Shown here: in pieces, positions 34,137 through 54,630 of the stretch | Position numbering within the stretch: the stretch's first letter is position 1 | Layout: every line of letters starts with the position of its first letter | DNA from: Verrucomicrobia bacterium S94 | GTDB lineage: Bacteria > Verrucomicrobiota > Kiritimatiellia > Kiritimatiellales > Pontiellaceae | DNA: 64,000 nucleotides | NCBI GenBank assembly: GCA_004299845.1 | Contig: CP036201.1 | Location: 1,302,001 to 1,366,000, forward strand | Reading direction: 5' to 3' | Translations under genes and position numbers: made by a program | The notes under the pieces: generated by a model | Databases searched by the model: none | Told to the model about the DNA's origin: nothing | What the model saw: the letters and a program-made list of their open reading frames with translations, nothing else

Positions 34137-34138
34137 GC

Positions 34139-36352
34139 TTACACAGGCTCCCATTCCGCCGTTGATGAAATACGTATCTTCACACATGTACCTTCTCCGG
34201 GTCGACTTTCAATTTCCAGCGTTCCTTTCAACTGATTCACCCGTTCCCGCATACCGAGGAGACCGAAGTGTCCAGCTTTAGAAGCAGATGCTGGATCAAA
34301 CCCGGAGCCATCGTCCATTATCCTTATGATCAGCCCGCCATTACGATAATCCAGAATCAGATCAATTTTATCCGGCTCCGCATGCTTCGAGGCATTGGCC
34401 ACCGCCTCTTTAATGATCAGCAGCAGATTACGCTCCGTCGCCTGGTTCAGTTTTCTGACCTCTCCCTCCACCTTCAGTTCAAACGACGCCCCGCAGGCGC
34501 GGACCATGGGTTCCAGCGTCTCCCGTAATGCCGGTATAAAATCAAGCCGCTCCAGAATGCCCCCACGCAGATCCATAATCGATGTGCGCGATTCCTGACT
34601 GCAATGGGCCAGCATCCCCTGCACCACCTCAATAGCATGGCGGTTTCGGTCGGAATCGGAAATGACCTCCTTGGCTTCCTTCTCGAGATGTGCTTTCACC
34701 GCCTTGTTTTCCGAACCGATCCGGTCCATCAGAGAACGAATGGAGGAGAGCCTTTTTTCCCGGTTCAACTCCAGCACACGTTGCGCTCCCCGCAGCTGAA
34801 TCGCCATACCGGCCAGACCCTGCTCCAGATTATCATGCAGCTCCCGGGCAATGCGCTGCCGTTCCTCCGAAATACTTTCCCGCGCCACCTGATCCGCAAT
34901 AACCCCCGTCTGTTTGCGCACAGTTCGCCGCAATGCAGCCACCCAGATCAGAATCAGTGTAATCAGACCGCTGCTGATCCCCAGCACCCAAAGCAGCCTG
35001 CCTGCGGTCCACCAGGGCGCCGGAACAAGCACCGTGACATCTGATGCCCAGCGCAACTGAATCCAGAACCAGTCCACATACAGCCGCCAGCGCCGTTCTT
35101 CACTGCGTGTCAGATTACAGATGCCCTCCAGGCGAATAATCGCTCCCGGTTTCAGATCTTCACTCAGACCGGCATAATGCGGGATCTTCGCTTCAAAAAG
35201 ATAGGAGCCCTGACGACAGAGCAGAATTTTTTCCTTGTACCCGGTCGTCAGGCCAAACGATTCCGTAATATCCACCAGCTCGGCATCCAGCTGCACCAGC
35301 TCATAATTCAGCGACGCTTCCGGAAAATTGTCCCACCGGGCTCTCAGTTCATCATTCAGAATCAGCGGAACCGGCTCCGGTAAAATCCCGGTCCGCTCAA
35401 CCACCCGCACTTCACGGGCGGCAAAATCAGGACTGATCGGCTTCGGGAGAACCACCCCCTCAACTTCGACGCGGTCACCGGCTTCAACGGCTGGTTCGCC
35501 GCGCAGCTTCACCTTGATACAAGCCTTTTCCCCTCGCAGATAAAGGTGAGTATCAGCAACATACGTCACAATACCTTTGGTACCGGTCGATAAACGGTGA
35601 TGCGCACTGCCACTGCGCAATAACTCATGAATTTCCTTAATTTCAACCCCTGTACCGGGCCGGTAATTATCCACCAGTTCAAATTCATCCGGGGAACTCA
35701 CAAAAAAAGTGCGCCCCACCACCTGCCGGTTCATGTTGAACTTTGTACCGGCTACTGCTCTGAATTTCACTCGGCTGAACATCAGGTCATCCACCTGCTT
35801 TTCCGCTGTTTCCGTCCAGGGCAGCTGAACATCCACCGGAACACTGTTCACAATGAGCCCCAGCGTCAGACTGGCTCCCGAATTGCCGTCCAGCTGAACC
35901 GATTTGGAAATAATCCGGCCCGCCAACCACACCCAGTCACAGTCAATCTGGCTGGAATAGAGCTCAAACGTGTAAAAAGGGCGCGCCTCGGGCAGCGGTT
36001 TATTTCCAAGCCGCTCGATACGGTCCGCAAAAATCGACGTAGAGAAAAAACCTTCATTGGTTTTACCTTCCACCCGAACAATGTCTCCCGGAACAAAACG
36101 GCTTAACGCACCGGCTTCCCGCGGTTTCTGGGCATAAATTCCATGTTTCCCATCATTCAGAAAAAAACCGCTTCCCGTGGGATGAATCCACATCACCTGG
36201 GCTACAACCCGGACCGGAAGTTCCTGCGCAGCCCGCTCTGGCGGCAGGGAACGCAACACGGTAAGATTGGTATAGACCAGCTCTGCACGAACAGTCGTAA
36301 TGCAGCTCAACAGCAACAGAAAGCATTTAAATACAGTTACGAATCGGCGCAT
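34139..36352 (-). CDS. Sensor histidine kinase with OB-like periplasmic domain
   Basis: Membrane kinase of 737 residues partnering the response regulator just downstream. Residues about 25-440 are extracytoplasmic and seem to hold tandem OB-fold-like repeats ([31 protein letters not shown]; then [30 protein letters not shown]). A transmembrane helix lies near residues 450-470, the HisKA_3 motif [19 protein letters not shown] has His near residue 506, and the ATPase domain shows [19 protein letters not shown] and [10 protein letters not shown] paralogue occupies 1-1759. A promoter 8 bases before the ATG suggests a leaderless transcript. Confidence 0.93.
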
Positions 36353-36398: not shown

Positions 36399-38408
36399 CT
36401 ATTCCCCATTGTTCATCCAGATCAGGTCATCCCGGTATTCACTTTCAAAATACGGCTGATATTTATAATCAAGCCCCGGCGTTTTCGGATTCCGGAAACG
36501 ATAGTTCAGATTGAAATACTTCAGATCCTTCAAATGATCGAGATAATGCTCCAGTAACAACTCAATATGCCACGTTCTCGCCGTTTCGTCGTGATCGTAC
36601 CATCCCTCGAACCGCCCCCAGCCGGATTGCTCAATCCATTCCTCCGCCTTCAACGCTTCACGCACATGCAGCAAAGCCTGATAGGCATCCAGCTGGGCCT
36701 TATGCCACTCCTTATTAAGATAATGTTCAAGCGATGCCGTAAAATCAACGGCCATCCCCGTCAGATGGCGCATTTTCAGCGTGGGATACACCAGATCCGC
36801 TTCATAGAAATCCAGCACATTACCGCTCAGGAAACGCCGGCAGTCATAAGCCCGTTCCAGTGCAACCTCCCAACGGCCTTCCGATGAACTAAAAAGATCC
36901 GGTCTCATCAGTTTCCGGTCCACCTCGTTCTGATAGGCGGCGTTGAGCATCTGCTCCACATAGTAGAAAAAATATTCATCCCCGGAGTTTTTCCGATCCT
37001 CCGAAAAGACGAATTGGCTCTCAAAAAAATCGCGATACGAATCAGCAACCGCAGAAACCTTTGCTCCCAGCACACGCTCCGCATACCAGTCAAAATACCA
37101 GTCGCCGTTTTCACAGGACTTAAAATCCTCAAACCGATTCATGTAATTCACCATCTGGCGAATGCCGAATATCTTCTCCTTGAAATTCCCCACATTCAGC
37201 ACAATCGCATTGGTCATTCCATATTCAACCGCACGGCCCATTTCACGTTGGAATGTATCCGGATGAATCGCATTAATACGCATATGCGTTTTTCGGTTGT
37301 GATACGAAACATGCTGATAGATTCCCATCTTCAGATCGCACTTTCCCGCCAGTTTCCAGTTCCAGTCGCCCATCACACCGTGCCCTGAATCGGAAAACAG
37401 CAGTATCGTATCCTCAGGATATTCCAGCAAACCGGAACTGTACAGCCGGCTCAACTCGCCCCACAGATAGCCGCAGATCACCGGATGCTCTTCGCCGGTA
37501 AGCTCCTTCAGCAGTTCATACTGCGTGCGGATCACATCATTCACCACCCGGGCTTTCTCTTCCATCGAACTCTCGCGTGACATCGTCGGATCATCATCCC
37601 AGAACGCACGATCCAGCAGTCCGCGGAAATTCAGCGTCCATATGACTTTTTTCCCCTTCTGCCGCTTAATCGCATCTGACCAGAAATCAATAAAATGCTC
37701 CCGGTGCGTCGACCACGAATAAGGAATATTCTTCGGCCAATATAACGGCACACTGCCCAGCGGTTCCGCATGGTGCTGGTTGATATAAAGACCCATATCC
37801 GAAGCAAGTACCAGATGCGGCTCATCCGGCAGAAGCAGTGTCGATGGAATCACTCCGGTCATTTTCAGACGAAGCATGGTTTCAAAAAGTTTTTCCATGA
37901 ACTCCATGTTCATCCCATACGACTGCTTCTCCATACGAAAACCGATAATCAGGTCTTCGTCATTCACAAACATCGCACGATGTTTAAAGGTATACGGCTT
38001 CGACTCCGTCACCCCGTTCGGAACATCCAGAGATCGAACCCGCTCCGGGACAATCCCCGTAAAATAAATGCACGGATCAATCCCCAGCACCTCTTCCGAA
38101 AACGAATAAATTCCGTGAATCAGACCCAGCTCATCCGACCCCGTAATAACAACACCCGAATCCGACACCTCAATGCGGTGCCGGTCAGATACCTTCCAGT
38201 TCTCGGAAATCCGGAATGTAAAACGGGCCGCAGCCACTCCCCGAGCCGGGAACCCGAATTTCCGCTGCAGATCTTTTTCAAATGCCTTTACCGCATAAAC
38301 CACAGCCTCCGAGCCGGACTCATCGCGAAGCTCCACATTCGCAGTAAGCGTCAGCCCGAAAACCTGCGATGCCGCAAGCATTCCAAGAACCGGAAGAATC
38401 TTTTTCAT
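36399..38408 (-). CDS. GH115-like glycosidase
   Basis: Exported 669-residue protein resembling GH115, a family of alpha-glucuronidases acting on (methyl)glucuronoxylan side chains. After a signal peptide comes the small alpha/beta domain common to GH20/GH115 proteins (DSGVVITGSDELGLIHGIYSFSEEVLGIDP), then DEPHLVLASDMGLYINQHHAEPLG, YSWSTHREHFIDFW and VIWTLNFRGLLDRAFW. It is shorter than characterised GH115 enzymes, lacking their C-terminal beta domain, so the specificity may differ. Its ATG overlaps the stop of the sulfatase gene (ATGA), implying coupling and a shared sulfated, uronic-acid-containing substrate (inference). Confidence 0.65.
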   Translation of the reverse strand: MKKILPVLGMLAASQVFGLTLTANVELRDESGSEAVVYAVKAFEKDLQRKFGFPARGVAAARFTFRISENWKVSDRHRIEVSDSGVVITGSDELGLIHGIYSFSEEVLGIDPCIYFTGIVPERVRSLDVPNGVTESKPYTFKHRAMFVNDEDLIIGFRMEKQSYGMNMEFMEKLFETMLRLKMTGVIPSTLLLPDEPHLVLASDMGLYINQHHAEPLGSVPLYWPKNIPYSWSTHREHFIDFWSDAIKRQKGKKVIWTLNFRGLLDRAFWDDDPTMSRESSMEEKARVVNDVIRTQYELLKELTGEEHPVICGYLWGELSRLYSSGLLEYPEDTILLFSDSGHGVMGDWNWKLAGKCDLKMGIYQHVSYHNRKTHMRINAIHPDTFQREMGRAVEYGMTNAIVLNVGNFKEKIFGIRQMVNYMNRFEDFKSCENGDWYFDWYAERVLGAKVSAVADSYRDFFESQFVFSEDRKNSGDEYFFYYVEQMLNAAYQNEVDRKLMRPDLFSSSEGRWEVALERAYDCRRFLSGNVLDFYEADLVYPTLKMRHLTGMAVDFTASLEHYLNKEWHKAQLDAYQALLHVREALKAEEWIEQSGWGRFEGWYDHDETARTWHIELLLEHYLDHLKDLKYFNLNYRFRNPKTPGLDYKYQPYFESEYRDDLIWMNNGE

Positions 38409-39777
38409 CGGACGTTTCTCTGATTTTCGTAAAGTTCCTTCTGGTGTTTCTTATGGTCCGGATAATCCCAGAACTGATAGCGAATATTATCCTTATTCCA
38501 TTCATCCCAGTCCTGCTGAAGCTGGTTCACCATCTCAGCCTGCTCCGGAGAATGATACAGATCGTTCTGTTCGCCGGCATCCTTCCCCAGGTTAAAGAAT
38601 TCTTTCACATCATTCGTCCAGTCGGCCTTCACCAGCTTTCTGCCGTCTTTATGAATAATGGCCCAGGCGGCTCCGTCACGGCGGCGAAAATAAATATTTT
38701 CATGCGGCGCATCCGTTTGTTCTCCTGTCATAAACGGAAATAGATTTTCTCCCTCCATATTCCCTTTTTCCACACCCGCCAGTGCCGCAATAGTCGGAGC
38801 AATATCAATTGAGATCACCGGCCAGGTAAACGTAGAACCGGCCGGAAGTTTGCCGGGCCAGTACGCCACAAACGGTACATGTATACCACCTTCATAAACC
38901 GCACCTTTGCCATCGCGGAACGGACCGTTGTCTGTCACCCGTCCCGGTTGCGGACCGCCATTATCACTCAGGAAAAAGACCAGTGTATTCTTCTGCAGCC
39001 CCTGCGATTCCAGCGCATGCAGAACCCGCCCGATCCCCTTGTCCATTTCAGTCACCATCGCCGCATAAATCTGCCGCTGTTTGTTTTCAATATGGGAAAA
39101 CTTTGCAACCGCTTCTTTCGGGCCTGCCATGGTGCATGCGGTGCATTGTAGGCTAGATACAGAAAAAACGGATCATCCTTGCTCTGCTCAATAAACTTCA
39201 GGGCCTGCTCCGTCAGCTGATCCGTCAGATAGCCTTCCACATTGGCGAATTTTTTATTATCAATCAGCGGCAGTTTATAGCTGTCCGCCAGATCAAGGGA
39301 ATTCACCTCAAAATAATCATGTCCACCGCCCGGAATGCCGAAAAAGAAATCAAAACCGCGATTCAACGGATGCTGCACCTTACTCATCCCCAGGTGCCAT
39401 TTGCCCACCAAACCAGTTTTATATCCCGCCTTTTTAAGCCGCGTGGCAATCGTGGTCTCCGAAGCCGGCAATCCCGATTTTTCATCCAGCGGCGCATAAG
39501 CCGGATTCGTCTCGAAACCGAAACGCTGCTGATAACGCCCCGTCATCAATCCCGCCCGCGTCGGCGCACAGAATGAATGGCTGGCATAGCCGTTTTCAAA
39601 ACGAACCCCTTCACTCGCCAGCCGGTCGATATTCGGCGTCCGGAAATCCGTACAGCCGTTAAAACTAACATCCGCAAACCCCAGATCATCCGCCAGAATC
39701 AGAACAATATTGGGTTTCTCAGCCGCAAAACATGAAGCCGCAGCCAATCCCAGCAATACAGCTGTTTTTCTCATCAT
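38405..39777 (-). CDS. Type I sulfatase (one frame break)
   Basis: Exported formylglycine-dependent sulfatase of about 457 residues. Signal peptide MMRKTAVLLGLAAASCFAA, NIVLILADDLGFADVSFNG, modification motif CAPTRAGLMTG (Cys near residue 70), GLVGKWHLGM, and after the break FFLSDNGGPQPG and PFVAYWPGKLPAG. Residues ...YNAPHAPWQA and PKEAVAKFSHIENKQ are in different frames; adding one base in the three-G run at 39120-39122 (plus strand) joins them exactly as in intact relatives. Probably a functional gene with a sequence error. GGAG precedes the ATG at 39777. Followed by the GH115-like gene with four-base overlap. Confidence 0.85.
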
Positions 39778-39819
39778 TTTCTCCATTCGTGTCCTATCTT
39801 TCCACATTAATACGCGCCT

Positions 39820-41939
39820 CTATTTTTTGACCGCTACCCGCAGTACAGCAGAACCGACCGCACCATCGTCTCCATCCGGAAAACTCACTTTCACGGAATT
39901 AATGGATTTCAACATCGTCGGATCCACATAAACCAGTTTGGTCGACGCATATTCCTTATCCGTATACCGCCCGGCCGAATCCTCCAGCGGAACCGCAAGC
40001 GCGCGACCGTTCAGCTCAATAACCGGCTCCACGCTTTTTTCCGGCGAACGGGTTACTGCCACCCGCAATTGGGCATAATCGATTTCCCCAAGGTCCGGAA
40101 TTATAATTTTAAACGTCGCGTCCGAAACCGGAACCGTCACTTTGTCCCCATAACAGACCACTTCATTCACCGCCCGCGTCGGTTTAATCGCTTCACCGTA
40201 ATCCGCAACCAGCATCACCGATTCCCGGCCCGCAATTTCCAGCACATCAGGGGTAGCGATTTTCTTTTCCACATACGACATCGTGAAATCCGGATTCCGC
40301 CCAAGGCGCCGCACTTCAACCGATCCCGTTTCAATACCGTAGAGATCAATCTTTTCCGGCTTAAAACTCTGATTATTGATGGCCAGATACAGCTTATTCT
40401 CATGCACAAAAGCACGGGTCTGCAGATCCGGATCGGAACACAGCGCCTTCACGCGGTGCCCATCAACACCCCGGAAAAACCGGTAAAAATTCAGGGTATC
40501 CTGCTCCACCCATTCACTCTTATCCGTATAATTTTTCGCTACATAAAGCTGGGCATAATATTTCGGCCCCCAATTCCAGGTCGTGGAAAGAATAAACGGC
40601 ACCGCTTTCTGTACCGTATGGGGATGGTCGATAAATGCCAGCGTGTTGGCGATAATGGAACTCACATGCCCGAAGCTGACAATCGACCGCTTCTTCATCT
40701 CCATTTCCCACGAATCATGATCGGCATGCGGATACGCATTGCTCAGAATCTGTGAAGCCACCAGCTCACCGTCAAAATCGCCCTTCGGCGCTTCCCCGTT
40801 ATAACCGCCCTGCTCACTCACCACAATATGGGCGGATTTACCAAATTCATTCATAGTATAATTGGGCACAAGGTCCAGCGTACCTTCCAGCGGCAACCCC
40901 GACTGCAGACGCCCCTTATACTCCCCGTCCCGCCAGCGCAGATAGTCATAAACATGGAAGGAATAAAAATCCATTTCACCATTAGTATGGTCGATAAACT
41001 GTTTCATTCCCTGAAAACTTCGATAGTTGTTGCGATAAAAATAACAAACCGACATACACAAACCGCCCACCTGTACTTCCGGTGTCGCCTTCTTCACCAT
41101 CTCATGAGTTTTCAGGTGCCAGTCCGCCAGATGCTGATCGTTGAAAAACGACCAGTGCGGTTCATTCACCAGTTCATAATACCGCGGCCGGGTAAAATCC
41201 GTATAATTAAACTTCAGCACTGCCGCCGCCAACAAAGCTGCGGCATCGATGTTTTCCGGAATATACTGCGGATGCTTGGCATCCCGGACTGAATCCGCCG
41301 TTTCATGGCGTCCCATATATTCCGGATAGGCGTTATGCGCCCCATGCATCGCCACATCCAGATTATCCCCGAAATCGGCTTTCATTCGGTCTGACCCATC
41401 CTGTGGCTTACCAGCCATCAACGGCTTCAAATCAGCAAACCCCGGTTTCTCCGGATCCTCCTTCAGCTTTGATGCCGGATATTTCACAAGCCCCAGCGAC
41501 CGACCGAAATTAATCCCCAGCTCATGCACCAGATAATCATATTTATCCTCCGGTACACGCCGGTCAAAATTAACTCCGCCGTCCGCAATGCTGAAATACC
41601 GCTTCCGATCCACCCGGGTCACGCCCTCAATCGCCCGCGCCGTGCGTGGCTCAACCACAATGTACGGTTTATTCCAATCTATGGAACGAGGCTTCTTTAC
41701 AGCTGGGAAGGATACCGTTGCATTTCGATCTTCACCATCCGCAGCCAGCTCCGGAACGGCATTATCTTCACGTCCCCCAGAACCGACACCTCGTCTACGG
41801 CACTGACTTTTTCCGGAATATCTGCCGTCCGCTCAGGCCCTGACGTTTCCGTTTTCTGCTCAACCGGATTTTCTTCCGGCACACATCCCGCACACAACAA
41901 TATCACCGCCAACATCGGGCCGGCATTCAGAATCTTCAT
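39820..41939 (-). CDS. GH86 beta-agarase/porphyranase-like lipoprotein (one frame break)
   Basis: Probable endo-beta-agarase or beta-porphyranase of about 707 residues. The N-terminus is a lipoprotein signal (MKILNAGPMLAVILLCAGC). The GH86 catalytic domain has YYELVNEPHWSFFNDQHLADWH (acid/base Glu) and HIVVSEQGGYNG (nucleophile Glu), then two beta-sandwich regions. The first about 55 residues are in another frame from the rest; one extra G in the run at 41774-41778 gives a continuous reading into DWNKPYIVVEPRTARAIEG. GGAGGAG lies before the ATG. This enzyme points to red-algal galactans as a substrate, consistent with the sulfatases around it. Confidence 0.82.
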
Positions 41940-42108: not shown

Positions 42109-44135
42109 TTACAGTTGCTCTACAACAATGCGCAGGTATCGCTGTTCCGGCGAATCGCTCCCGGCCCGGAATCGGTACTGGATCAGGTCATGTTCCGGTT
42201 TTTCCGGAAGGTCGTTGGTGAACATGCCATCCGCAAGCAGTGGAACCCATACATCTTCTGTAATGTCGGTGCAGACTTCAACCATGTACTGCATACCGAA
42301 TCGTTCAGAACCTTTCAACTGCGGCACAAACAGATGGCCGTTTCCATCGGCAGTAAAATCCAGATAGAAAAGACCGGTGTCTGCCGGATTGGTGGGATTC
42401 GACCCCAAGGCAAATTCAAGGAAATTTTCCTGTCCGTCGCCGTCATCGTCACCCTCCATACCGCCCGTCAGACCGTATTGCGCCTCAAAGTTCGAAAAGG
42501 CATCCGCAACCGGCAGATTCACGGTCACGGAATTGACCTGAAAGGCATTAAGCCCGGAATTGTTGGCGGCCGGATTGATTCGCTGAAAAAACAGATAGGC
42601 TCCCGAGCCGGCCAGGGCATTGTACACATCGGTACCGATTCCCGCGTAATCGACTCCCGACACTCTATAACCGGATACCGTACCGGTTCCTGTGTCCGTG
42701 CCGTCAGTCAGGTTCTGCAGCCGCACAGTATAGAAAGTGTCAGCCGCTGTAGAACCCATGGTGAGTTCATAATCAAGTTGCATCCGGTCGCCACCGTCCG
42801 GATCGCCGCTGGAAACAGAACCCGCACCGGAAGGTATCGCATAATTATTGAGAAGCCGGTATTTCCCGTCAGTCTGCAGCTGAACATTCACGTCCGGCTC
42901 ATGTCCGCCGGTGGACACACTCCCGGACGAGGCATCGGCTTTCAGTCCGGAGAGCACCGTATAGACAAAACCGGTGGGAACAGCATAGGTTCCGCTGAAT
43001 TCAAAATCCATGCTGTAGGCAAACGTCTCTCCCGGTGCCAGCCTGATCGGAAGGTTCAGCACCGCCAGGCTGTTGTTTGCCGTGGTGACAGCAGAGCCGC
43101 CGTCGTTCGTATTCACAATCCAGCCGTCTTCGGCGTTCCATCCCACCTGACCGTCAAGTTCACCATTGGCAAATCCGCCATCGGCCTCGAACCCTATTAT
43201 CGAAATATGAACAACCTCCACTGTAACCTCGTCATAAGCGGTATTGTTTTCGTCGTCCATGACGGTCAGACGGAAAACATAGGAACCCTGCACCAGCCCG
43301 GCGCCGGAAAGCACAGCGCTCGACGCGCCGGAAAGCACAGCGGTGTTAGGCCCCGATTGCTGGGTCCAGCTGTAGGTGGAAATCGTGCCGTCATCCGTAG
43401 CACTGCCGGTCAGAGTCACCTGATTTTCCGGCAGATTGATCACCTGATCCGTACCGGCATTCACAAAAGGTCCACCGAAAAGAATCGATTCCGGCTGATT
43501 TACAAATACGGAATCGTTGGGCCAGTTACCCAGATCACTGTGGGCAAACATAATGCGATCCAGATTGAATTGATTCGAACGCCCTGAAACCGTGAAAGTA
43601 TAAATCCCCCCGCTTTGAATTCATAATAAACCGGCACATGGTCGGCACCAGGTGCATCCATATTGGTTGCACGCGACCACTCCGTTGCACTGCCGCCATA
43701 GAGCTTGGAATCGGTCAGCAACGCACTCAGCGCAACATCGTCTGAACCGCTTTGAAAATCTCCCTCCATTCGAACAAAACAGTCGTTGTGCTGATCACTC
43801 CCGTCCCCCGGATTCAACCGTTTGTGGGCACGCAGAAATACCCGGTAAACCCCGGCCTTGTTGATTTTAAAGGTATAGACCAGCGGTGAAGACGGAACGC
43901 CCCATCCGTCGGGCCCATACCGCTTATATTCCAGATGTCCTGTACCGGTGGCTCCGGCCGGATATCCGGCTGCACCGACAGTATAAAAATCCCATCCATC
44001 GTACGGTGATTCAGTATTTTCCGCCTCCATAATAACGAGGCCGTTGGCTTCGTTATAAATCCGTTCTGCAAAACTGCTGACCGTTATCAGCAGTGAAGTA
44101 CCGCATATGCACAGCCATGTTACTTTTTCCATCAT
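42109..44135 (-). CDS. Exported CBM-like/PKD modular protein (one frame break)
   Basis: Exported protein of about 676 residues. Signal peptide; CBM6/malectin-like module (NGLVIMEAENTESPYDGWDF ... VYRVFLRAHKRLNPGD ... FKAGG(I)YTFTVSGRSNQF); PKD-like domain (NAGTDQVINLPENQVTLTGS); an about 190-residue beta domain; and a calcium-binding-like repeat (DDDGDGQENFLEFALGSNPT) with a beta tail. Codons before and after the six-G run at 43606-43611 are in different frames; one more G restores the module. No catalytic motif is seen. A promoter matching that of the ECF sigma gene precedes it, so it is the best candidate target of that sigma factor. Confidence 0.78.
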
Positions 44136-44147
44136 TGTCCTCCTTAT

Positions 44148-44174
44148 TATAGGTCCCTCACTTGACGACCTATA
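44148..44174. promoter_or_regulatory. Inverted repeat TATAGGTC/GACCTATA
   Basis: Perfect 8-base arms (44148-44155 and 44167-44174) separated by 11 bases, just before the 44135 start. The distal arm overlaps the -10-like part of the sigma-type promoter, so it may be an operator or a 5'-leader hairpin. Confidence 0.4.
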
Positions 44175-44203
44175 TGCAGGAGCTATATCGATATTAGGCA
44201 GAA
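44167..44203 (-). promoter_or_regulatory. ECF-type promoter of the 42109-44135 gene
   Basis: Minus strand TTCTGCCTAAT (44203-44193), 17-base spacer, ATATAGGTC (44175-44167). The same two blocks with the same spacing occur before the ECF sigma gene at 48321-48357, while the spacers differ. The -10-like block ends in GTC, common in ECF promoters. Confidence 0.65.
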
Positions 44204-44207
44204 TAAA

Positions 44208-46496
44208 TTATCTGTTGTTACGTCGGATCAGGACAACCCAGTCGGACGTCGGTTTTGACGGGGCCTCACCCAGCGAAACAGAGGAACCGCCGCTCACAGT
44301 TGCTATACTGCCGCGGACCAAATCCCCACCGTTTATCGGATCAAACCAATAGACTTCATACGCACCGTTCATCTGCTTCAGATTCAGCGAAGCACGGCCT
44401 CCTTCCGGCAGATAGACGACAAACACGTTTTTCCCATCCGACAGACAGTGTCCGGTTCCGCCGGAGAGCAGTTCATCGTGATTTTTCATGGTCCAGAACG
44501 GGATATGCTGATCCTGGAAAAATTCATTAACGGCAATATCCGACCAACGGAGCAGCTTCTCGAAATGGGCGTAGTTATCCAGCCTGAGATCAGAACCGCC
44601 GGAATAGTATTCCACCCCTCCGCCGCCGGCCATGAGGTTGCCCCACAACACATTTTTTCGGCTCAGTTCAAAACTCTGGTTCACGCCCAGATTCCCCGGC
44701 CCCTGCTCATCGCACGCCACGACCCACGGCCGGCCGGCTTCAGCTGAACGATCAACCCACAGCTTTGTTTCATTAAAAACATTTTCCGTATCAACGGCTT
44801 CCGGGGTCTGAAGCGAAATACCGGTCAACTCTGAGGCCCCGAGATGCGGAGCGTAAAATTTACTTTTATCCTTCGAAGGCCCCGTATGAAAAACACGGGG
44901 ATGCTGCCACGGATCAATCTTTTCCATATACTTCAGCCATTCCGTCCGCGTTTCCGCCCCGACCGGAATCTCTTCCGACATATTCCAGTTCAGTGCCAGA
45001 TGATGACCGAACCGGGCAACCATTTCCCGATAGAAGAGCTTACGCTCCGGTCCCAGCTGCCCGCCATCAAGATCGCGCGCATTTTCCAGTTCCATCAATT
45101 TAAAATGCAGGTGAAGTCCCTTTTTCTCCGCATGGTCAAAAACCCGTTCCCACTGCGCCAGTTTGGAGCAGTCAAAACGCAACCGTTCATTTTTATCCAC
45201 ATACGGAAAAACGCGGTCGCCATCACCGGGACCGGAATAGGGACGTTTACCGTTGTTCGGATCAGGGACCAGCCGACCGACATTATTGAGCAGCATCGAA
45301 ACCGAATTCGCTCCGGTACCCGAAATATAATTCAACGCACCGTATATATTTTTTCCCTTGCCGTTCCCCCACAGTTCACCGTCGCCGTTATAGTGTTTCG
45401 CGTGTGAGGCGAAGGTATGGCGAATGCCCTTGTTTCCTTTTTCGGGGGTATTGTCGAATTCATAATATTCGAGAAAATTTTCCGGCGAATCAGGACCGAA
45501 TTTCAGAAAATATTTTCCGCTGCCCTCAAACTGAAGGTGGTGTTTTCCAACATAGCGCAATCGGCCTTCTGCCCTTAGATCCGGTGCTTCTGCCGGGTTG
45601 TCTCCGGAAATCTCAAATGAACCGGAGATTCCATTATACAGGTCCAGCGCATATCCCTTTCCCCCCGTCGCCACCTGATGCCCCTGAATAAATGAAACCT
45701 CATAATTCCAGACTCCGGAAACATCCGGTCGAAAATGACAGAACCATAAACTTCCCGAATCAGCGCCACTGTCTGCGGCATTTCCATCCGCCGCGAAATA
45801 ACCGGGAACCACCATCGTTTTTCCGGATACCGGATGGGTAAACCTGACATCCATCCGGTAGTCCGTAAACGGATTCGGTATTGCCCGTTCCGATGAAAAC
45901 GGACCGTTAAGTTTAAGGGTGATCTTATGCCAAAGAAACCGTTCTCCATAAATTTCAACTGAAGCGGTCTGAGTGCCGACCGGTGTAAACGCCACAGACG
46001 TCCAGCGTCCACGGGCGTAGGCCGTGCTGTCTCCTTCCGGAACCCTACCGTTTGTCACGCAGTCCGACTCCACCGCAATCGTTGCACCGTCCGGAATTTC
46101 AACTTTCCGGAAGCAATGTTTCTGTGGCGCATAATCTACATCGGTTTCCGCATTCTGCACCGTACCGATAATCTTTCCATTCACCAGAAACCGATAGGTG
46201 CACTCCCCGTCCAGCTCGCGCAGTGTTGTCAAAATAACATCATATGTTCCGCCCGCCTCAGCGAACGGAGTTTCGGCCCGTGCAAACCGGTTTCGGAACT
46301 TCGGGTTCCCCGCATTGATGGCCAGTGCCTTTTTCCACTTATGCACATAATACGGCACTTCGCCGGCTTCCGTTTTTGAAAAATCCGCAATCGCGGAATA
46401 CACCACAGTATCGGCGTTTTCTTCGGCAAAACCGGCATAGCCGGGAAGAAATACGGCGATGATGCATGACCATTTCACAAATTGTTTCCGCTTCAT
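44208..46496 (-). CDS. DUF5060-domain glycoside hydrolase-like protein
   Basis: Exported 762-residue protein. After a signal peptide come two beta-sandwich modules, the second a DUF5060-like domain (VEIYGERFLWHKITLKLNGP ... NPFTDYRMDVRFTHP), then a TIM-barrel-like catalytic part (LRYVGKHHLQFEGSGKYFLK, HLHFKLMELENARDLDGGQL, HLALNWNMSEEIPVGAETR, WVVACDEQGPG) and a C-terminal beta domain (GRASLNLKQMNGAYEVYWFD). The conserved Glu residues in NMSEEI and CDEQG are candidate catalytic acids (inference). Substrate unknown. Its ATG overlaps the FecR stop (ATGA), so it is coupled to the ECF/FecR pair. Confidence 0.75.
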   Translation of the reverse strand: MKRKQFVKWSCIIAVFLPGYAGFAEENADTVVYSAIADFSKTEAGEVPYYVHKWKKALAINAGNPKFRNRFARAETPFAEAGGTYDVILTTLRELDGECTYRFLVNGKIIGTVQNAETDVDYAPQKHCFRKVEIPDGATIAVESDCVTNGRVPEGDSTAYARGRWTSVAFTPVGTQTASVEIYGERFLWHKITLKLNGPFSSERAIPNPFTDYRMDVRFTHPVSGKTMVVPGYFAADGNAADSGADSGSLWFCHFRPDVSGVWNYEVSFIQGHQVATGGKGYALDLYNGISGSFEISGDNPAEAPDLRAEGRLRYVGKHHLQFEGSGKYFLKFGPDSPENFLEYYEFDNTPEKGNKGIRHTFASHAKHYNGDGELWGNGKGKNIYGALNYISGTGANSVSMLLNNVGRLVPDPNNGKRPYSGPGDGDRVFPYVDKNERLRFDCSKLAQWERVFDHAEKKGLHLHFKLMELENARDLDGGQLGPERKLFYREMVARFGHHLALNWNMSEEIPVGAETRTEWLKYMEKIDPWQHPRVFHTGPSKDKSKFYAPHLGASELTGISLQTPEAVDTENVFNETKLWVDRSAEAGRPWVVACDEQGPGNLGVNQSFELSRKNVLWGNLMAGGGGVEYYSGGSDLRLDNYAHFEKLLRWSDIAVNEFFQDQHIPFWTMKNHDELLSGGTGHCLSDGKNVFVVYLPEGGRASLNLKQMNGAYEVYWFDPINGGDLVRGSIATVSGGSSVSLGEAPSKPTSDWVVLIRRNNR

Positions 46497-47770
46497 TGAT
46501 GCTCCATTGGTTTCATTTTCAAAATCAGTTCCGGCGCTTCACCGGCTTCAGTGGATCCCATCCAGATATCATCGCCCCACAGTTTATCGAGGGTGACTAC
46601 CCACGTATTCAGCCCTGCCCTCAGATCCCTCGGGTTAATTTCAAATTCCAGAAATTCACCCAGGTCGATTTTTCCCCGAAATTCAGAAATCTGTTTCTCC
46701 AGCCGGTCCAATGCATTTTCCGGCGTTGATCCCGGAGATGCAGCATGCAGACGGACCACCCCTCCACCACCGTCGGGCCGGCGACTGGAAACCTGCAGCC
46801 GCAGACGGGCCTGCGCAATCCGCTCCGGCGCTTCAGCCACATCAAATTTAAGGAAAACCTGGTGATTCCGCTTCGGATCAATATGCAGGATATTGTGGTT
46901 ATCCAGACCGATATTATCATCCTGCACCGGCAGCAGTACCCGGTGCAAAACGCGCCCGCCCTTTTCAGTTATACTTCGGCTGTCGGTAACCATGCCGGCT
47001 CCCACTTCCACACTCTGATCGTCGGAGCGGGTTGCAAACCGAACCCTCCCCTCCTGCACTGACAGGCGGGTAAACTGATCCACCAAAACCTCAAATGAAG
47101 TTCCCAGCACCACGACCTCGGCATCGTGCGTCGTAATTTTCATCGGCATCCCGGGCTTCTGCTTATCCACGTCTGCATGCAGATGACCTGATGTAAGGTG
47201 AATCCGCTTAGCACCGTCCTGATCCGAAACCGCGAACAGCGATCCGCCGGCTATGAAAATGAACGTCCGCTCACCGATATAACTGAACATGAGCGATCCG
47301 CCCACGGGAACCACAATCCGGTCACCGGTATATACCGGATCACCGTACCCGAGAGCGCGCACCTCGCCCTGATTTATCGCAGAAACAGAGCCCCCTCCGG
47401 CCGGAAGAGCAAGCTCAACCACCGTGGCCACCGGCTGATAGTCTATGCTTCCGTCAGAAACAAAATTATTAATCCGCGTGTGCTGCGCCAGATAGATTCC
47501 GGAAAAGGTCAGCAACAGGGCCGCAGCTGCGGCAATACGGCGCACCTTCTGTACCCGTGTTTTCCGGACCGGAAACAGAATGGTTTTCGCTTTCCGATAC
47601 GCCTGATAATCGCTCATAAGCCACTCATCGCGGGCGGTCTCGATAAAATAATTTCCAAGCTGCGGATCATTCCGAAGTGCTGTTTGCAGCTCCTCAAGTT
47701 CTTCCTCGCTCAAATCACGTAGAAAATATTCGGCCGCCAGATTTTTCAGATAATCCTCCGTATTGGCCAT
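46493..47770 (-). CDS. FecR-type anti-sigma protein with DNRLRE-like C-terminal domain
   Basis: Membrane regulator of 425 residues that would hold the ECF sigma factor inactive. Residues 1-75 are cytoplasmic and helical (LSEEELEELQTALRNDPQLG), a transmembrane helix lies at about 78-95, and a FecR domain at about 140-250 (GYGDPVYTGDRIVVPVGGSL, LTSGHLHADV, VVLGTSFEVLVD, LSVQEGRVRF). Residues about 278-419 resemble the DNRLRE/CBM96-type beta-sandwich (NHQVFLKFDVAEAPERIAQA, RLRLQV, W-D-DIWMGSTEAGEAPELIL). That would put a carbohydrate-binding domain directly on the anti-sigma factor (inference). Its ATG shares one base with the sigma stop (TGATG). Confidence 0.82.
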   Translation of the reverse strand: MANTEDYLKNLAAEYFLRDLSEEELEELQTALRNDPQLGNYFIETARDEWLMSDYQAYRKAKTILFPVRKTRVQKVRRIAAAAALLLTFSGIYLAQHTRINNFVSDGSIDYQPVATVVELALPAGGGSVSAINQGEVRALGYGDPVYTGDRIVVPVGGSLMFSYIGERTFIFIAGGSLFAVSDQDGAKRIHLTSGHLHADVDKQKPGMPMKITTHDAEVVVLGTSFEVLVDQFTRLSVQEGRVRFATRSDDQSVEVGAGMVTDSRSITEKGGRVLHRVLLPVQDDNIGLDNHNILHIDPKRNHQVFLKFDVAEAPERIAQARLRLQVSSRRPDGGGGVVRLHAASPGSTPENALDRLEKQISEFRGKIDLGEFLEFEINPRDLRAGLNTWVVTLDKLWGDDIWMGSTEAGEAPELILKMKPMEHQ

Positions 47771-48300
47771 CAGAACACCTCAGGACGCTGCAGCTGGAAT
47801 TCAATGCACTTTCGCAGTTCGGCCTTCAGCCGCTTCAATAAGGAATAAATACTCTGCACCGATTTACCCAGCGCCACGGCAATCTGCGTGCAATTGCAGT
47901 TATCAACATATTTCAGCTCAACAATCCGCCGCTGTTTTGCCGGCAGTTTCTGCATACACCTGTCGAGTGCATCCCGGCGCGGCGTCATCTGCTCAGCACT
48001 GAACACCGCCATTTTCGGGAGATATTCATCGATCACCTCGAAACTGATATGCCGTGCATCCCGTCGGTTTTTCTGATACCATTGCTTAATCTGGTTTTTG
48101 GTGATGCCCATAATCCAGGGCAGCGCCGGACGCTCCCCGTCAAACGTCGCTCCGGCCTGTGCGATTTTGATCGCCACGGACTGCAACACCTCTTCACTTC
48201 CGTGATAGCTGCGCGTTGAAGCGAAAACATACCCCCGCAGATTTCCGTGGTTTTCATAAAAAACGGTCAGCAGATTTTCAATCTTTTCCGAATCGGTCAT
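47770..48300 (-). CDS. ECF RNA polymerase sigma factor
   Basis: Sigma-70 family ECF factor of 176 residues of the Planctomycetes/Verrucomicrobia type. Region 2 is visible in NLRGYVFASTRSYHGSEEVL ... PWIMGITKNQIKQWYQKN, and region 4 helix-turn-helix in LPAKQRRIVELKYVDNCNCT ... IAVALGKSVQSIYSLLKRLK. It is first gene of the string sigma, FecR, DUF5060 protein. AAAGGAA precedes the ATG, and an ECF-type promoter lies 20 bases upstream, suggesting autoregulation. Confidence 0.92.
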   Translation of the reverse strand: MTDSEKIENLLTVFYENHGNLRGYVFASTRSYHGSEEVLQSVAIKIAQAGATFDGERPALPWIMGITKNQIKQWYQKNRRDARHISFEVIDEYLPKMAVFSAEQMTPRRDALDRCMQKLPAKQRRIVELKYVDNCNCTQIAVALGKSVQSIYSLLKRLKAELRKCIEFQLQRPEVF

Positions 48301-48320
48301 TTACGGATTCCTTTAAATAT

Positions 48321-48357
48321 GACCTACATACGGTGCAGTCTTCCGGATTAGGCAGAA
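48321..48357 (-). promoter_or_regulatory. ECF-type promoter of the sigma/FecR operon
   Basis: Minus strand TTCTGCCTAAT (48357-48347), 17-base spacer, ATGTAGGTC (48329-48321), then AAAGGAA and the sigma ATG 20 bases on. The same pair of blocks at identical spacing precedes the 44135 gene, which supports recognition by this sigma factor. Confidence 0.65.
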
Positions 48358-48478: not shown

Positions 48479-49965
48479 TCAGGCAGGCTGAAGGCCCCGT
48501 TGCATATCGTTAAGGCGCCGAGCCTGATTCTTAGCTACCTGCGAAAGCGTAAGGCGCGGAATCTTCCACAGCGGCTCTTCGTTCGGCGTATAGGAACAAT
48601 GTTCGTGTACAACCTGATAGAGCAGTTTAAAGGCATCGCGAGGCTGCTGCATTTGTCCCAGCGCATCAAGTACATCCTGAAGCGATACATCTTCATCAAA
48701 GAAATCACTCAGCACCGGCGCATCCGCGTTATTATCGCAGCACGCTTTAAGGCGCATGTTGGCGAGATCGTACAGAGCGGAGCCCGACCAGGCAAGGCGG
48801 TCAATCATGCACTGCTTATCAAGCCGCGCTTTCATATAGAAGTCTTCAGATTCCCGGTGAACAAGATAGCGCAGTTCAATCGGCAGCAGCAACTTGATGC
48901 CGATATGCTGCTGCTGGAGAAATTTGTTATTGAGCATCGGCCAGACCAGCTCCTTCATCTTCTGTGCATCACCATTGATCATGGCCGGCTCATCCACGCG
49001 ATCAACAAGAACCACCATTCCGCTGTAGCCGAACTCCCCGAGAATCGCCAGCAGGAACCGGTTGAGTTCATAGCGGCTGTCATGATCGCCGGGCATGGGC
49101 AGTGCTATTCCGGCCGTCCGGGTACGCCCGATCTTCCGCAACTTCCGGGCAAGTTCGCCGGTAACATGTCCAACCGTCCGGATTTCGCGGCGAAGGCGCG
49201 CCGCCAAAGTATGCGTCCGTAAAAATTCCACACCCTGCAGCAATACCAGCAGAAGCGCCCCCCCAGCCCGATGCCGCCGCCAGCCAGAGAAACCCAGCGA
49301 GGCAGTTCCAGCGTATCGCCGAAAAGCAGCAGCGTGGCACCGATCAGAGCAAACAAGGCCGCCGCAATCCATTCAGCAAACTGCATTGTGCCGATGCGTA
49401 CAAGTGCCCGAAGCCGTTCAAAACGCTGATCATTCAAACTGTTAGGCTGATCATACAATGCAGCAAGCAGACACAATCCCATCCGTTTACGGCGACTCAT
49501 GCGCTTTACGCTGCGCCGCATACCGCTGAATCCCGGCAGTTCCGGCCGCTCGCCCATGAGGGTATCCACCAGTTTGGTCACGGCAAGTGCAAGCATAGCA
49601 TCCTGATGATCTTCAAGCCGCATGTGCCGCAACGGATTCTCTTCTTTGAAACGGCTTGCAAAAGTATCCAGCGCGGCATTCTGATCGTCATACCGAACCA
49701 CCCAGACACGCTGATCTTCTGAATTTTCATTATGAAGCGCGTACTGCTTTTCCATCGTCAGGCGCAATGCCGTTTTTCCACTGCCCTTTTCTCCGAACAC
49801 AATGGCCGAGGAGGGATGCTCGGGGGTGCCGTAGATTTTGGCAAAATCAGGATGGGTGGATTCTTCCGAAAGTAATCGCAGAAACACCGGATCATCGGTC
49901 GCCTCTTCGGCGCTGAATGGATTTTCCAGTACGTTCCAGTGCCGCCAGAAATCAAAAACCCGCAT
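48479..49965 (-). CDS. KAP-like P-loop ATPase with membrane hairpin (one frame break)
   Basis: P-loop NTPase of about 495 residues. Walker A is GEKGSGKT (residues 58-65). Two hydrophobic helices follow near residues 195-216 and 222-245, and a Walker B-like MVVLVDRVDEP lies near residue 320. Transmembrane helices between Walker A and B are the hallmark of KAP NTPases, so I place it there. The frame changes inside the second helix, at a run of seven G (49258-49264); eight G give the continuous GGALLLVLLQGVEF. The start lies two bases after the dynamin gene stop, so the two proteins are made together and may act together at the inner membrane (inference). No specific function is known to me. Confidence 0.72.
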
Positions 49966-49967
49966 CG

Positions 49968-52130
49968 TTAACCCCTATCTTCTTCCGTCTCGTTATCTGT
50001 CTTTTCTGAATCGGAGGCACCGGTATCCGCCGCACCCGTATCCATGTTATTATCACCCGCCGAGTCGTTTGCAATCTCCGAATCATCTTCCGCAGACTCC
50101 TCCTGAACCTCCCCGGATTCCACCCCCTGCTGCGTCGAACCTTCCAGCGCCGTCTGCATCGCGGACAGACGGCCGTCAAAATCCTCAACTGCCGCCGCCA
50201 TTCCATCGGTCAGAGTCAGCATATGTTCAAGTTCAGCAATCTCTTTTTCCAGTTTTTCAAGTTCATCTGTGAGTGCCGTTTCATCCGCTTCGAGTTTCGA
50301 TAACACCGTATCCCGCAATGTTTCCGTATGCCGGTCCGCCAGCAGCTCCGCTTCTTTTTCCATGGCGTCCGCCAGACTGTTTTTCACGAAAGCCTGGACC
50401 TGAACAATCAGATATTCGCGGGCTTCATCCCCCAGACGGCGTTCCTTCTGCACAACGGGTATCGTCCGGCTGCCGTAGTCTCCGAACAGCTTTCTCCGGA
50501 TTCTCACAGGGCTGCGGAAAAACAGATAATCAAAAAAGCGGCGACGAACCGGTATCGTGGCCGGATCCAGCTCAAATTTTTTAATGGCAAACGCCTCTTC
50601 CGACCCCATATGCTGAACGGAATCACCACTGATTTCAGCCAGGTCAATCTCCAGCAACCGCAGTGCTTCGCGGGCACCGCTTTCCAGTTCCGCTCCGGCA
50701 AAAGCGCCGCCCAGATGGCGTTTCATAATCCGGCGGGCCTGTTCTCCAAGACGCTCAGCCTCGGCTTCTATCCTTTCGCCAAATCCCTTTTCGCCCAGCG
50801 TTTTCAAACTGTTTTCCGACTGAAACCATTCATCAAGCACTTTGCTGAGCCCACCGCGCAACTGTACAACAGCATCTCCGACCATCGTGCCGATTTCAGA
50901 AATCGTCATCCGTCGTGTTGCGGAAAAAACGGCATTCCAGTCGAGATCCGTTATACAGCGTACCGCTTCCCGTCGTTTCAGAAGTTCTTCACGTTTTTCC
51001 CGGTCGCCCTCGCAGGCCGACCGCAACCGTTCAATAGCCACTCCCGTAACCGCATCCCTCAGCTCTTTGGCCAGGATGCCGCCCTGATTGATACTGTCGC
51101 GGCGGAATTCAAACAGATAATCACTGCTGTTGAGATAATCACTGAGATCCGCAAGAAAATCATCAAAGGCCGAAGTGCCCTCTTCCGTATTTTCCTGACC
51201 GGATCCTAAACGCCCGGCAGCGGCACTGAGCAGATCAATCGGATAGATATTAAGCCGGCCTTCATCAAACGCTTTACGAAGCGGAGCCTCCATCGAGAGC
51301 GATTCAAACGCTTCCACCACACGCTGCGGTGCTTCGCTTTCAACACTGGGTCTCAGCGAACCGTCCGGCGCAAGATCCTTCTTGTTGCCGTCAATATTGA
51401 CAACCAGAAAAACCCGGCTGAAAATATCCAGCAGTTTGTTGAATTCAGCAAAAACCTGTTCCAGGAAAAGGTTTTCCGTTTTTACAACGAAAACCGCACA
51501 CGCAGCGGCATCACGGAAATCCCGCGTCATCAGGTCATAGCCGAACTTCATACGGGTGTACAGGCCGGGGGTATCCACCAGTACCACACCGGATTTGGCC
51601 AGATCGGCCGCCGGAAGGCTGATGTCAATCCGGCGCAATGCATCGGGATAATCGGTAGCGGGATCAAATGTCCGGCCGGCTTCCTCGGCTTTTTTCAATT
51701 CCTCGGCAAGTTCGCCATGCTTCGTATCCACCAGCTGCTCGAGCTCTTCGCGACTGCCGATTCCGCGGCACTGCCCTCCATAGGACGTGGTTGAAAACGC
51801 CTGCTGTTCTCCATCCCGGACATAAACCAGACACGGATAGGCCGGAAGACTGCTGACTTCGCTGACATAACTTCCGCTGATGGCATTCATCAAGGTTGAC
51901 TTACCGCTTTTCAGCGGACCGAAAATAATCAGATAGGCCTGTTGCGCCTCCAGTTTATCAACCAGAATCTTAAGGCGGTGCTGCACATCGGCCAGTTTCG
52001 GGCGGGCATCGCCGAGCATTTCTGCCCGGCCGGCATCATCCATTCTGGACAGTGATTCATCCAGAGTCCGCAGGAGCGGTGATGCGAATGCGGAATAGTC
52101 TACGCAAAAATCACGAAGTTCAGTTTTCAC
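49968..52130 (-). CDS. Bacterial dynamin-like GTPase
   Basis: Large GTPase of 720 residues expected to bind and reshape membranes. G1 is GPLKSGKST (71-79), G3 is DTPG (186-189), and G4 lies in VNIDGNKKD (about 244-252). A long helical region follows, with a basic/aromatic patch (RRFFDYLFFRSPVRIRRKLF) that could be the membrane-contact paddle, a coiled coil near residues 620-660, and an unusual Asp/Glu/Ser/Thr-rich tail of about 50 residues. It has no transmembrane helix. The start is a GTG at 52130 with AAGGA about ten bases upstream. It forms a two-gene unit with the KAP-like ATPase gene. Confidence 0.88.
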   Translation of the reverse strand: MKTELRDFCVDYSAFASPLLRTLDESLSRMDDAGRAEMLGDARPKLADVQHRLKILVDKLEAQQAYLIIFGPLKSGKSTLMNAISGSYVSEVSSLPAYPCLVYVRDGEQQAFSTTSYGGQCRGIGSREELEQLVDTKHGELAEELKKAEEAGRTFDPATDYPDALRRIDISLPAADLAKSGVVLVDTPGLYTRMKFGYDLMTRDFRDAAACAVFVVKTENLFLEQVFAEFNKLLDIFSRVFLVVNIDGNKKDLAPDGSLRPSVESEAPQRVVEAFESLSMEAPLRKAFDEGRLNIYPIDLLSAAAGRLGSGQENTEEGTSAFDDFLADLSDYLNSSDYLFEFRRDSINQGGILAKELRDAVTGVAIERLRSACEGDREKREELLKRREAVRCITDLDWNAVFSATRRMTISEIGTMVGDAVVQLRGGLSKVLDEWFQSENSLKTLGEKGFGERIEAEAERLGEQARRIMKRHLGGAFAGAELESGAREALRLLEIDLAEISGDSVQHMGSEEAFAIKKFELDPATIPVRRRFFDYLFFRSPVRIRRKLFGDYGSRTIPVVQKERRLGDEAREYLIVQVQAFVKNSLADAMEKEAELLADRHTETLRDTVLSKLEADETALTDELEKLEKEIAELEHMLTLTDGMAAAVEDFDGRLSAMQTALEGSTQQGVESGEVQEESAEDDSEIANDSAGDNNMDTGAADTGASDSEKTDNETEEDRG

Positions 52131-52287: not shown

Positions 52288-54630
<2,343 letters not shown>

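What the first reader, a model, noticed from the sequence alone, without database searches (positions are those of the whole stretch)
42109..48357. ECF sigma/FecR circuit whose anti-sigma factor seems to carry its own carbohydrate-binding domain
The FecR protein ends in an about 140-residue DNRLRE/CBM96-like beta-sandwich. No TonB receptor is nearby, unlike classical iron-type FecR systems. The sigma gene, FecR gene and a DUF5060 glycosidase gene overlap in one string. This suggests a direct design in which a polysaccharide binds the anti-sigma factor and releases the sigma factor to transcribe the degradation genes. I do not know a description of this arrangement.
Basis: partly seen in the sequence, partly recalled or inferred. 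Interest (0 to 1): 0.72.

Follow-up and report, generated by a model that had tools for sequence, protein, structure and literature searches.

The report
Anti-sigma factor with sugar-binding-type sensor domain
In a seaweed-degrading type of marine bacterium, a membrane protein that holds a gene switch in check ends in a domain built like known sugar-binding modules, where its relatives carry the part that listens to an outer-membrane receptor; this suggests a direct sugar sensor, an idea known from cellulose-degrading clostridia but apparently reached here from a different protein family.

Summary
Window 46493-47770 (-) encodes a FecR-type transmembrane anti-sigma factor whose last ~150 residues are a DNRLRE/CBM96-type beta-sandwich: profile match to a true CBM96 domain 98.9%, E 1.3e-17; predicted fold closest to chondroitin-sulfate and alginate CBM structures, Z 17.0 and 14.7. 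It overlaps a TIGR02989-type ECF sigma gene and a DUF5060 gene. It replaces the STN subdomain through which classical FecR proteins contact a TonB receptor; the five TonB receptors of the genome are ~0.4 Mb or more away and none has an STN domain. I add: (1) the family occurs in 7 of 28 genomes of this genus (inferred Pontiella) plus one Opitutae-labelled bin, and in no other genome of 346 (class) or 388 (phylum sample); (2) a TG[AC]CTAA(T) element precedes the sigma gene in essentially all loci and several partner genes, suggesting autoregulation and a regulon; (3) the full-length partner protein occurs only in genomes with this FecR. New variant of a known kind.

The parts
48321..48357 (-). 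Conserved element TTCTGCCTAAT-N20-TAGGTC upstream of the sigma gene; proposed autoregulated ECF promoter
   Evidence: Rank 1 in the whole window (22.3 bits) with a matrix trained on 12 relatives without the window; 10 Markov controls reached at most 17.7. TTCTGCCTAAT occurs only 3 times in the 4.1-Mb genome, all at this family. No sigma-70-like promoter found there.
47770..48300 (-). ECF sigma factor gene (176 aa, TIGR02989-type, Rhodopirellula/Verrucomicrobium family)
46493..47770 (-). FecR-type anti-sigma factor gene with C-terminal CBM96/DNRLRE-type domain (425 aa)
47615..47770 (-). Residues 1-52: cytoplasmic helical anti-sigma region
   Evidence: AlphaFold helices 4-15, 22-34, 36-52, low to medium confidence; invariant EWL at 49-51
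47483..47536 (-). Residues 79-96: transmembrane segment that begins with an invariant [I/V]AA motif (79-81)
   Evidence: Alignment of 11 members. E. coli FecR spans 80-100 and is cut by RseP near residue 85 (PMC8144685). XAA ends are recognised by ClpXP in RsgI (PMC12203970).
46967..47332 (-). Residues 147-268: FecR juxta-membrane (CJM) subdomain, with the invariant Gly223-Thr224 pair
   Evidence: Matches PupR 111-236 (6ovk) Z 16.4 and BDI_1681 Z 14.7; G223/T224 invariant in 11 members
46511..46957 (-). Residues 272-420: CBM96/DNRLRE-type beta-sandwich in the place of the STN subdomain
44208..46496 (-). DUF5060 / putative glycoside hydrolase (762 aa) with Collagen_bind_2 C-terminal domain; partner gene, 4-nt overlap with FecR
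   Evidence: Pfam DUF5060 2.1e-18; 43-48% identical to the partner proteins next to sigma/FecR in three relatives
44167..44203 (-). Second copy of TTCTGCCTAAT-N20-TAGGTC
   Evidence: rank 2 in the window (16.7 bits, within the control range)
42109..44135 (-). Secreted CBM-like/PKD protein gene, split by a frameshift near 43600 into ORFs 43500-44135 and 42109-43551
   Evidence: K319L-like PKD 2.5e-24; same N-terminal module as in the partner proteins of relatives (by eye)
39820..41658 (-). GH86-type beta-agarase/porphyranase gene; neighbour, regulation by this sigma not shown
   Evidence: Pfam Porphyrn_cat_1 3.6e-18, BPA_C 1.3e-7

Best explanation
A one-step periplasmic glycan sensor built on a FecR anti-sigma factor. 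At rest the cytoplasmic part of FecR holds the ECF sigma factor. The usual receptor-listening STN subdomain has been replaced by a CBM96/DNRLRE-type domain. When that domain binds a glycan in the periplasm (most likely an oligosaccharide from algal polysaccharide), the periplasmic part, possibly already nicked at Gly223-Thr224, becomes open to proteolysis. An RseP-type protease then cuts the transmembrane helix, ClpXP clears the remnant at the exposed [I/V]AA end, and sigma is freed. Sigma then transcribes from TG[AC]CTAA-type promoters its own operon (sigma, FecR, DUF5060 partner) and other secreted CBM/GH genes. Shown here by sequence and structure prediction: domain anatomy, loss of STN, absence of an STN-bearing receptor, gene string, shared upstream element, co-occurrence with the partner. 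Inferred: glycan as ligand, the proteolytic cascade, and that this sigma reads the element.
For: Domain: profile and fold matches. Swap: model residues 147-268 match the CJM of PupR only; PupR continues into an STN subdomain (residues 250-324) that supplies most of the receptor interface (PMC7186176), whereas the FecR here continues into the CBM fold; no FecR_C/STN family hit in any of 11 members. No receptor: five TonB receptors, none near, none with STN. Partner: 6 of 28 genomes of the genus carry the full N-domain+DUF5060 partner and all six are among the seven with FecR-CBM96 (hypergeometric about 2e-5 by my arithmetic, not corrected for kinship); in three relatives the partner itself carries CBM96. 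Element: TG[AC]CTAAT or a one-base variant upstream of the sigma gene in the window, 11 loci of relatives and own paralogues, and L080; also before the secreted gene of the window, before another gene of the L066 cluster (22.7 bits, L154) and an unlinked DUF5060 gene (L155); TGACTAA lies upstream of the unlinked partner in G000 and G027. Signalling parts: invariant GT and [I/V]AA, M50 and S41 proteases present, GT self-cleavage precedent in FoxR (PMC11637429), RseP/ClpXP precedent in RsgI (PMC12203970).
Against: No ligand test. The essential alginate-binding Arg36 of CBM96 is replaced in register (His303 in the window protein, Tyr and others elsewhere), although an invariant Arg301 lies two residues earlier. 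DNRLRE domains also occur in surface proteins of unknown role (PMC9971899). Four loci (L065, L067, L068, L080) have sigma/FecR without an adjacent degradation gene. The second promoter box is poorly conserved, so assignment of the element to this sigma is indirect. Only a few target genes were found, none of them the GH86 or sulfatase genes of the window.
Confidence: 0.5

Rival explanations
1. The CBM96-like domain is a protein-docking or envelope-monitoring domain: it senses the partner (DUF5060/PKD/CBM96) protein or its export, and the circuit is feedback on a surface protein rather than a food sensor.
For: FecR and the partner carry homologous CBM96 domains in three relatives; full partner and FecR co-occur; the Arg of the alginate site is not in register in FecR.
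Against: The partner of the window lacks the CBM96 domain and L067/L068 pairs are unlinked to it; nearest solved folds are both carbohydrate-binding modules.
Confidence: 0.18
2. The ligand is an endogenous envelope or exopolysaccharide, and the sigma factor controls surface/matrix proteins, not algal polysaccharide degradation.
For: Neighbours in L061 and L066 are PEP-CTERM proteins, a group linked to exopolysaccharide (general knowledge); partners are long PKD/Ig surface-type proteins; a periplasmic domain sees endogenous glycans first.
Against: In the window the system lies among GH86, GH115-like, GH29, GH95, GH3, GH2 and sulfatase genes; DUF5060 partners keep an invariant NWN..EE and DEQGP that could be catalytic.
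Confidence: 0.15
3. The TG[AC]CTAA element belongs to another regulator, and the surrounding degradation genes are run by the histidine kinase/response regulator pair at 33507-36352.
For: HisKA_3/HATPase and LuxR-type response regulator genes lie in the same gene block; such pairs next to GH genes are noted in Pontiella agarivorans (PMC10880615); the second box of the element is weak.
Against: The element is upstream of the sigma gene in all loci of the family, including unrelated surroundings such as next to clpX and in the Opitutae-labelled bin; the 11-mer occurs nowhere else in the genome.
Confidence: 0.12
4. A hidden TonB-dependent receptor still relays the signal, as in classical FecIRA systems.
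For: Five TonB receptors exist in the genome.
Against: None is nearer than about 0.4 Mb, none has an STN domain, and the FecR protein lacks the STN subdomain needed for the known interface.
Confidence: 0.05

Closest known systems
SigI/RsgI systems of Clostridium thermocellum (RsgI1-6 with C-terminal CBM3, PA14 or GH10; PMC4711584, PMC12203970)
   Same: Transmembrane anti-sigma factor whose outer part is a carbohydrate-binding module; sigma and anti-sigma genes adjacent; sigma autoregulates and drives CAZyme genes; paralogues differ; XAA motif in the transmembrane helix for ClpXP.
   Different: Here an ECF sigma and a FecR-type protein in a two-membrane PVC bacterium; the sensor faces the periplasm and is CBM96-type, not CBM3/PA14/GH10; ligand untested.
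FecI/FecR/FecA and Pup/Fox cell-surface signalling (PupR 6ovk, PMC7186176; FoxR, PMC11637429)
   Same: Same sigma/anti-sigma gene order, transmembrane topology, FecR (CJM) subdomain; an invariant GT pair.
   Different: No STN subdomain; no STN-bearing TonB receptor; a CBM96-type domain instead.
CBM96 / DNRLRE domains (7vbo alginate CBM, PMC9971899; 8wab chondroitin-sulfate CBM)
   Same: Fold and profile match over the whole domain.
   Different: Attached to an anti-sigma factor, not to an enzyme; Arg36 equivalent not in register.
FecR-like protein LIC_12756 with ECF LIC_12757 of Leptospira (PMC12155086)
   Same: FecR/ECF pair in a species whose TonB receptors lack the N-terminal signalling extension.
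   Different: No carbohydrate-binding domain described there.

Membership tests
[quoted passage not shown]
   Pfam FecR 1.2e-9; ECF sigma overlaps by 1 nt; fold match to PupR CJM Z 16.4
[quoted passage not shown]
   No FecR_C/STN family hit in 11 members; those residues are instead confidently a CBM96-type fold
[quoted passage not shown]
   Five receptors in the genome; none with STN, none within 0.4 Mb
[quoted passage not shown]
   G223-T224 is invariant, but cleavage needs an experiment, and an alignment to the FoxR site was not made
CBM96/DNRLRE domain family | Sequence score over the curated cut-off for the protein itself | tested here: not met
   13.5 bits against 26; 14.3 against 34
CBM96/DNRLRE domain family | Profile-level homology and same fold | tested here: met
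   98.9%, E 1.3e-17; 7vbo 1.5e-6; Z 14.7-17.0
CBM96/DNRLRE domain family | Key ligand residue Arg36 | tested here: inconclusive
   Not in register; invariant Arg301 two residues away; numbering of 7vbo deduced by me
CBM96/DNRLRE domain family | Demonstrated carbohydrate binding | not testable with these tools
   Needs a binding assay
RsgI-type polysaccharide-sensing anti-sigma factors | RsgI N-terminal domain with SigI-family sigma | tested here: not met
   The sigma is ECF (TIGR02989/Sigma70_r4_2) and the anti-sigma is FecR
RsgI-type polysaccharide-sensing anti-sigma factors | C-terminal carbohydrate-binding-type domain outside the cytoplasm | tested here: met
   by analogy only, not homology
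RsgI-type polysaccharide-sensing anti-sigma factors | Sigma autoregulation and CAZyme regulon through a shared promoter | tested here: inconclusive
   Shared element found upstream of sigma and several partner genes; transcription not measured

The most novel reading that the evidence does not exclude
In Pontiella-type bacteria the FecR anti-sigma factor has exchanged its receptor-binding STN subdomain for a glycan-binding module and so become a receptor-free periplasmic glycan sensor, a counterpart of clostridial RsgI reached independently in a two-membrane lineage; together with an NPCBM-ending FecR in the same genus it would represent a modular series of sugar-reading FecR proteins, each paired with its own sigma and promoter sub-type.
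Probability: 0.45. Interest if true: 0.65.

Novelty: new variant of a known kind. Interest (0 to 1): 0.52.

Why it matters
How PVC-group bacteria, important degraders of sulfated seaweed polysaccharides, sense their substrates is largely unknown; this gives a specific, testable sensor, ligand domain and promoter element. It would also show that a FecR signalling scaffold can be rewired from 'listen to a TonB receptor' to 'bind the sugar yourself', a simple part swap that could be used to build sugar-responsive switches in Gram-negative hosts.

Tried and rejected
Motif with an 18-nt spacer: wrong spacing, noise only. Three-mismatch scan with the right spacing: only the two window sites stand out. 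AlphaFold of the DUF5060 protein: mean pLDDT 45, too poor for a fold search, so its glycosidase family stays open; no sequence relative in the PDB. Pfam of other FecR proteins of the class: mostly no recognisable C-terminal family; one weak LamG (E 0.005), one weak GH71-like (E 0.0035), so I do not claim that sugar domains are general. BMP/TGF-beta prodomain hits (Z 10-12) were taken as shared beta-sandwich topology, below the CBM hits. Literature searches for a FecR protein with a carbohydrate-binding domain found none in the held open-access library, which is not proof of absence. Chance: the full two-box pattern, present twice in the window, was matched in none of 100 shuffles.
Full report
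Setting. The window is 1.302-1.366 Mb of a 4.11-Mb single-contig genome. Its genus holds 28 genomes here, with sizes of 8.7, 7.4 and 4.4 Mb among them that match P. desulfatans, P. sulfatireligans and P. agarivorans (8.66, 7.40, 4.44 Mb; PMC10880615), and named relatives are Pontiellaceae/Kiritimatiellales. I therefore take the genus to be Pontiella (inference). The window is rich in sulfatases and glycoside hydrolases, among them GH86 agarase/porphyranase, GH29, GH95, GH3, GH2 and GH115-like.

Observation. Sigma (47770-48300), FecR (46493-47770) and a DUF5060 protein (44208-46496) are on the minus strand with 1-nt and 4-nt overlaps. The FecR protein has a helical N-terminus, a transmembrane segment at about 79-96, a FecR domain and a C-terminal all-beta domain. 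By sequence alone the last part is only a hint of CBM96 or DNRLRE (E 0.067 and 0.032). With the family profile the match is firm: 98.9%, E 1.3e-17 to the CBM96 domain of a relative's partner protein, against nothing for three control profiles; 1.5e-6 to the alginate CBM 7vbo. The AlphaFold model (mean pLDDT 72.6, mostly 80-94 in this domain) matches 8wab, a chondroitin-sulfate-binding module, at Z 17.0 and 7vbo at Z 14.7.

What was swapped. Residues 147-268 match the juxta-membrane subdomain of PupR (Z 16.4). In PupR this is followed by an STN subdomain, and the contacts with the receptor's signalling domain come from the linker and STN elements (PMC7186176). In this family the STN place is taken by the CBM96-type domain. 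Fittingly, none of the five TonB receptors of the genome has an STN domain and none is near.

Distribution. Full-length matches occur only in 7 genomes of this genus (12 loci) among 346 genomes of the class (121 genera) and, in a phylum sample of 388 genomes (199 genera), only in this genus, plus one bin labelled uncultured Opitutae (L080). Other FecR proteins of the class match only in the FecR part. One in G027 ends in an NPCBM domain (E 1.7e-21), a second kind of putative carbohydrate-binding FecR. The own genome has three CBM96-type copies. The tree shows deep paralogy; the window copy pairs with L058 of G014 (99/98 support).

Partner. In L059, L061, L063, L064 and L066 the FecR gene is followed by a long secreted protein with DUF5060, PKD, Ig-like and CBM modules; in L061, L064 and L066 it contains its own CBM96. 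In the window the modules sit in two genes. The complete N-domain+DUF5060 partner is present in six genomes of the genus, all among the seven with FecR-CBM96; genomes without FecR-CBM96 (G009, G022) have only shorter DUF5060 proteins. The hypergeometric chance is about 2e-5 (my arithmetic, not corrected for kinship or completeness).

Regulatory element. TTCTGCCTAAT-N20-TAGGTC occurs twice in the window, upstream of the sigma gene and of the secreted gene at 44135 (none in 100 shuffles). The 11-mer occurs three times in the whole genome: these two and upstream of the second sigma/FecR pair. TG[AC]CTAAT, usually after a T-run, is found 25-75 nt before the sigma gene in nearly every locus (two one-base variants). 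Across 230 upstream regions of ORFs in these loci only 9 held TG[AC]CTAA, and at least 7 of the 9 belong to this family. A matrix trained without the window ranks the two window sites first and second; the first exceeds ten Markov controls (22.3 against at most 17.7), the second does not by itself (16.7). TGCC has become [TA]GAC in one clade (L065-L068), and in the two genomes with unlinked, clpX-adjacent TGAC-type pairs the unlinked partner gene has TGACTAA upstream within conserved non-coding DNA. Other hits precede a gene in the L066 cluster and an unlinked DUF5060 gene of G005. That the sigma factor itself reads the element is inferred from ECF autoregulation in general; the second box is weak.

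Mechanism. I propose glycan-triggered proteolysis. Gly223-Thr224 is invariant; FoxR self-cleaves at a Gly-Thr pair in its periplasmic part (PMC11637429), though I did not align the two sites. [I/V]AA at 79-81 is invariant at the start of the transmembrane helix, where E. coli FecR is cut by RseP (about residue 85; PMC8144685) and where XAA ends in RsgI are read by ClpXP (PMC12203970). M50 and S41 proteases exist in the genome. These steps are inference. The domain lies in the periplasm of a two-membrane cell, so the signal should be an oligosaccharide or an endogenous glycan.

What is uncertain. Ligand binding is untested. The arginine essential for alginate binding in CBM96 is kept in the partner's domain but not in register in the FecR domain, which has an invariant arginine two residues earlier (the residue numbering of 7vbo was deduced by me from its calcium ligands, and one of them did not fit). 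The DUF5060 protein's activity and substrate are unknown.

Novelty. The principle of an anti-sigma factor with a CBM is known from RsgI (PMC4711584), and FecR pairs without a signalling receptor are discussed in Leptospira (PMC12155086). New, as far as the searched library shows, are a CBM96-type domain in place of the FecR STN subdomain, its lineage restriction, its partner, and the shared promoter-like element. Hence: new variant of a known kind.

Noticed in passing
window 33507-36352: Histidine kinase (HisKA_3/HATPase_c) and LuxR-type response regulator genes inside the degradation gene block; a candidate alternative regulator of the GH and sulfatase genes.
   Followed up: partly
window 42109-44135, 38405-39807, 52581-54391: Several genes are split into overlapping ORFs (secreted PKD protein near a G-run at about 43600, a sulfatase, a GH95): either assembly indels or pseudogenes; the FecR and sigma genes are intact.
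   Followed up: partly
L069:7812-9137: A further FecR protein in G027 ends in an NPCBM domain (E 1.7e-21): a second type of FecR with a putative carbohydrate-binding module.
   Followed up: partly
L104:394-2616: One open frame holds both a sigma-70 region 2 and a FecR domain (741 aa): a possible fused sigma/anti-sigma protein in this class.
   Followed up: no
L067:8240-11379 and L068:9623-12746: Sigma/FecR-CBM96 pair sits convergent to clpX in two genomes; notable because ClpXP is the expected last protease of such cascades.
   Followed up: no
L061:14822-16706 and L066:1613-2437: PEP-CTERM proteins directly downstream of the partner gene.
   Followed up: no
L121:6671-8341: Another secreted protein of the own genome with a CBM96 domain (E 1.7e-14), not near any sigma/FecR pair.
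   Followed up: no
L093:946-2349: A FecR protein with a weak GH71-like C-terminal match (E 0.0035), which would parallel the GH10 end of RsgI6.
   Followed up: no
window 49968-52130: Dynamin-like GTPase gene (Dynamin_N 6e-11) upstream of the sigma gene, followed by split ORFs at 48479-49965.
   Followed up: no
window 4133-5533: Transposase of Pfam DDE_Tnp_1_4 (1.2e-147) between a PhoD-like phosphatase and a sulfatase gene.
   Followed up: no
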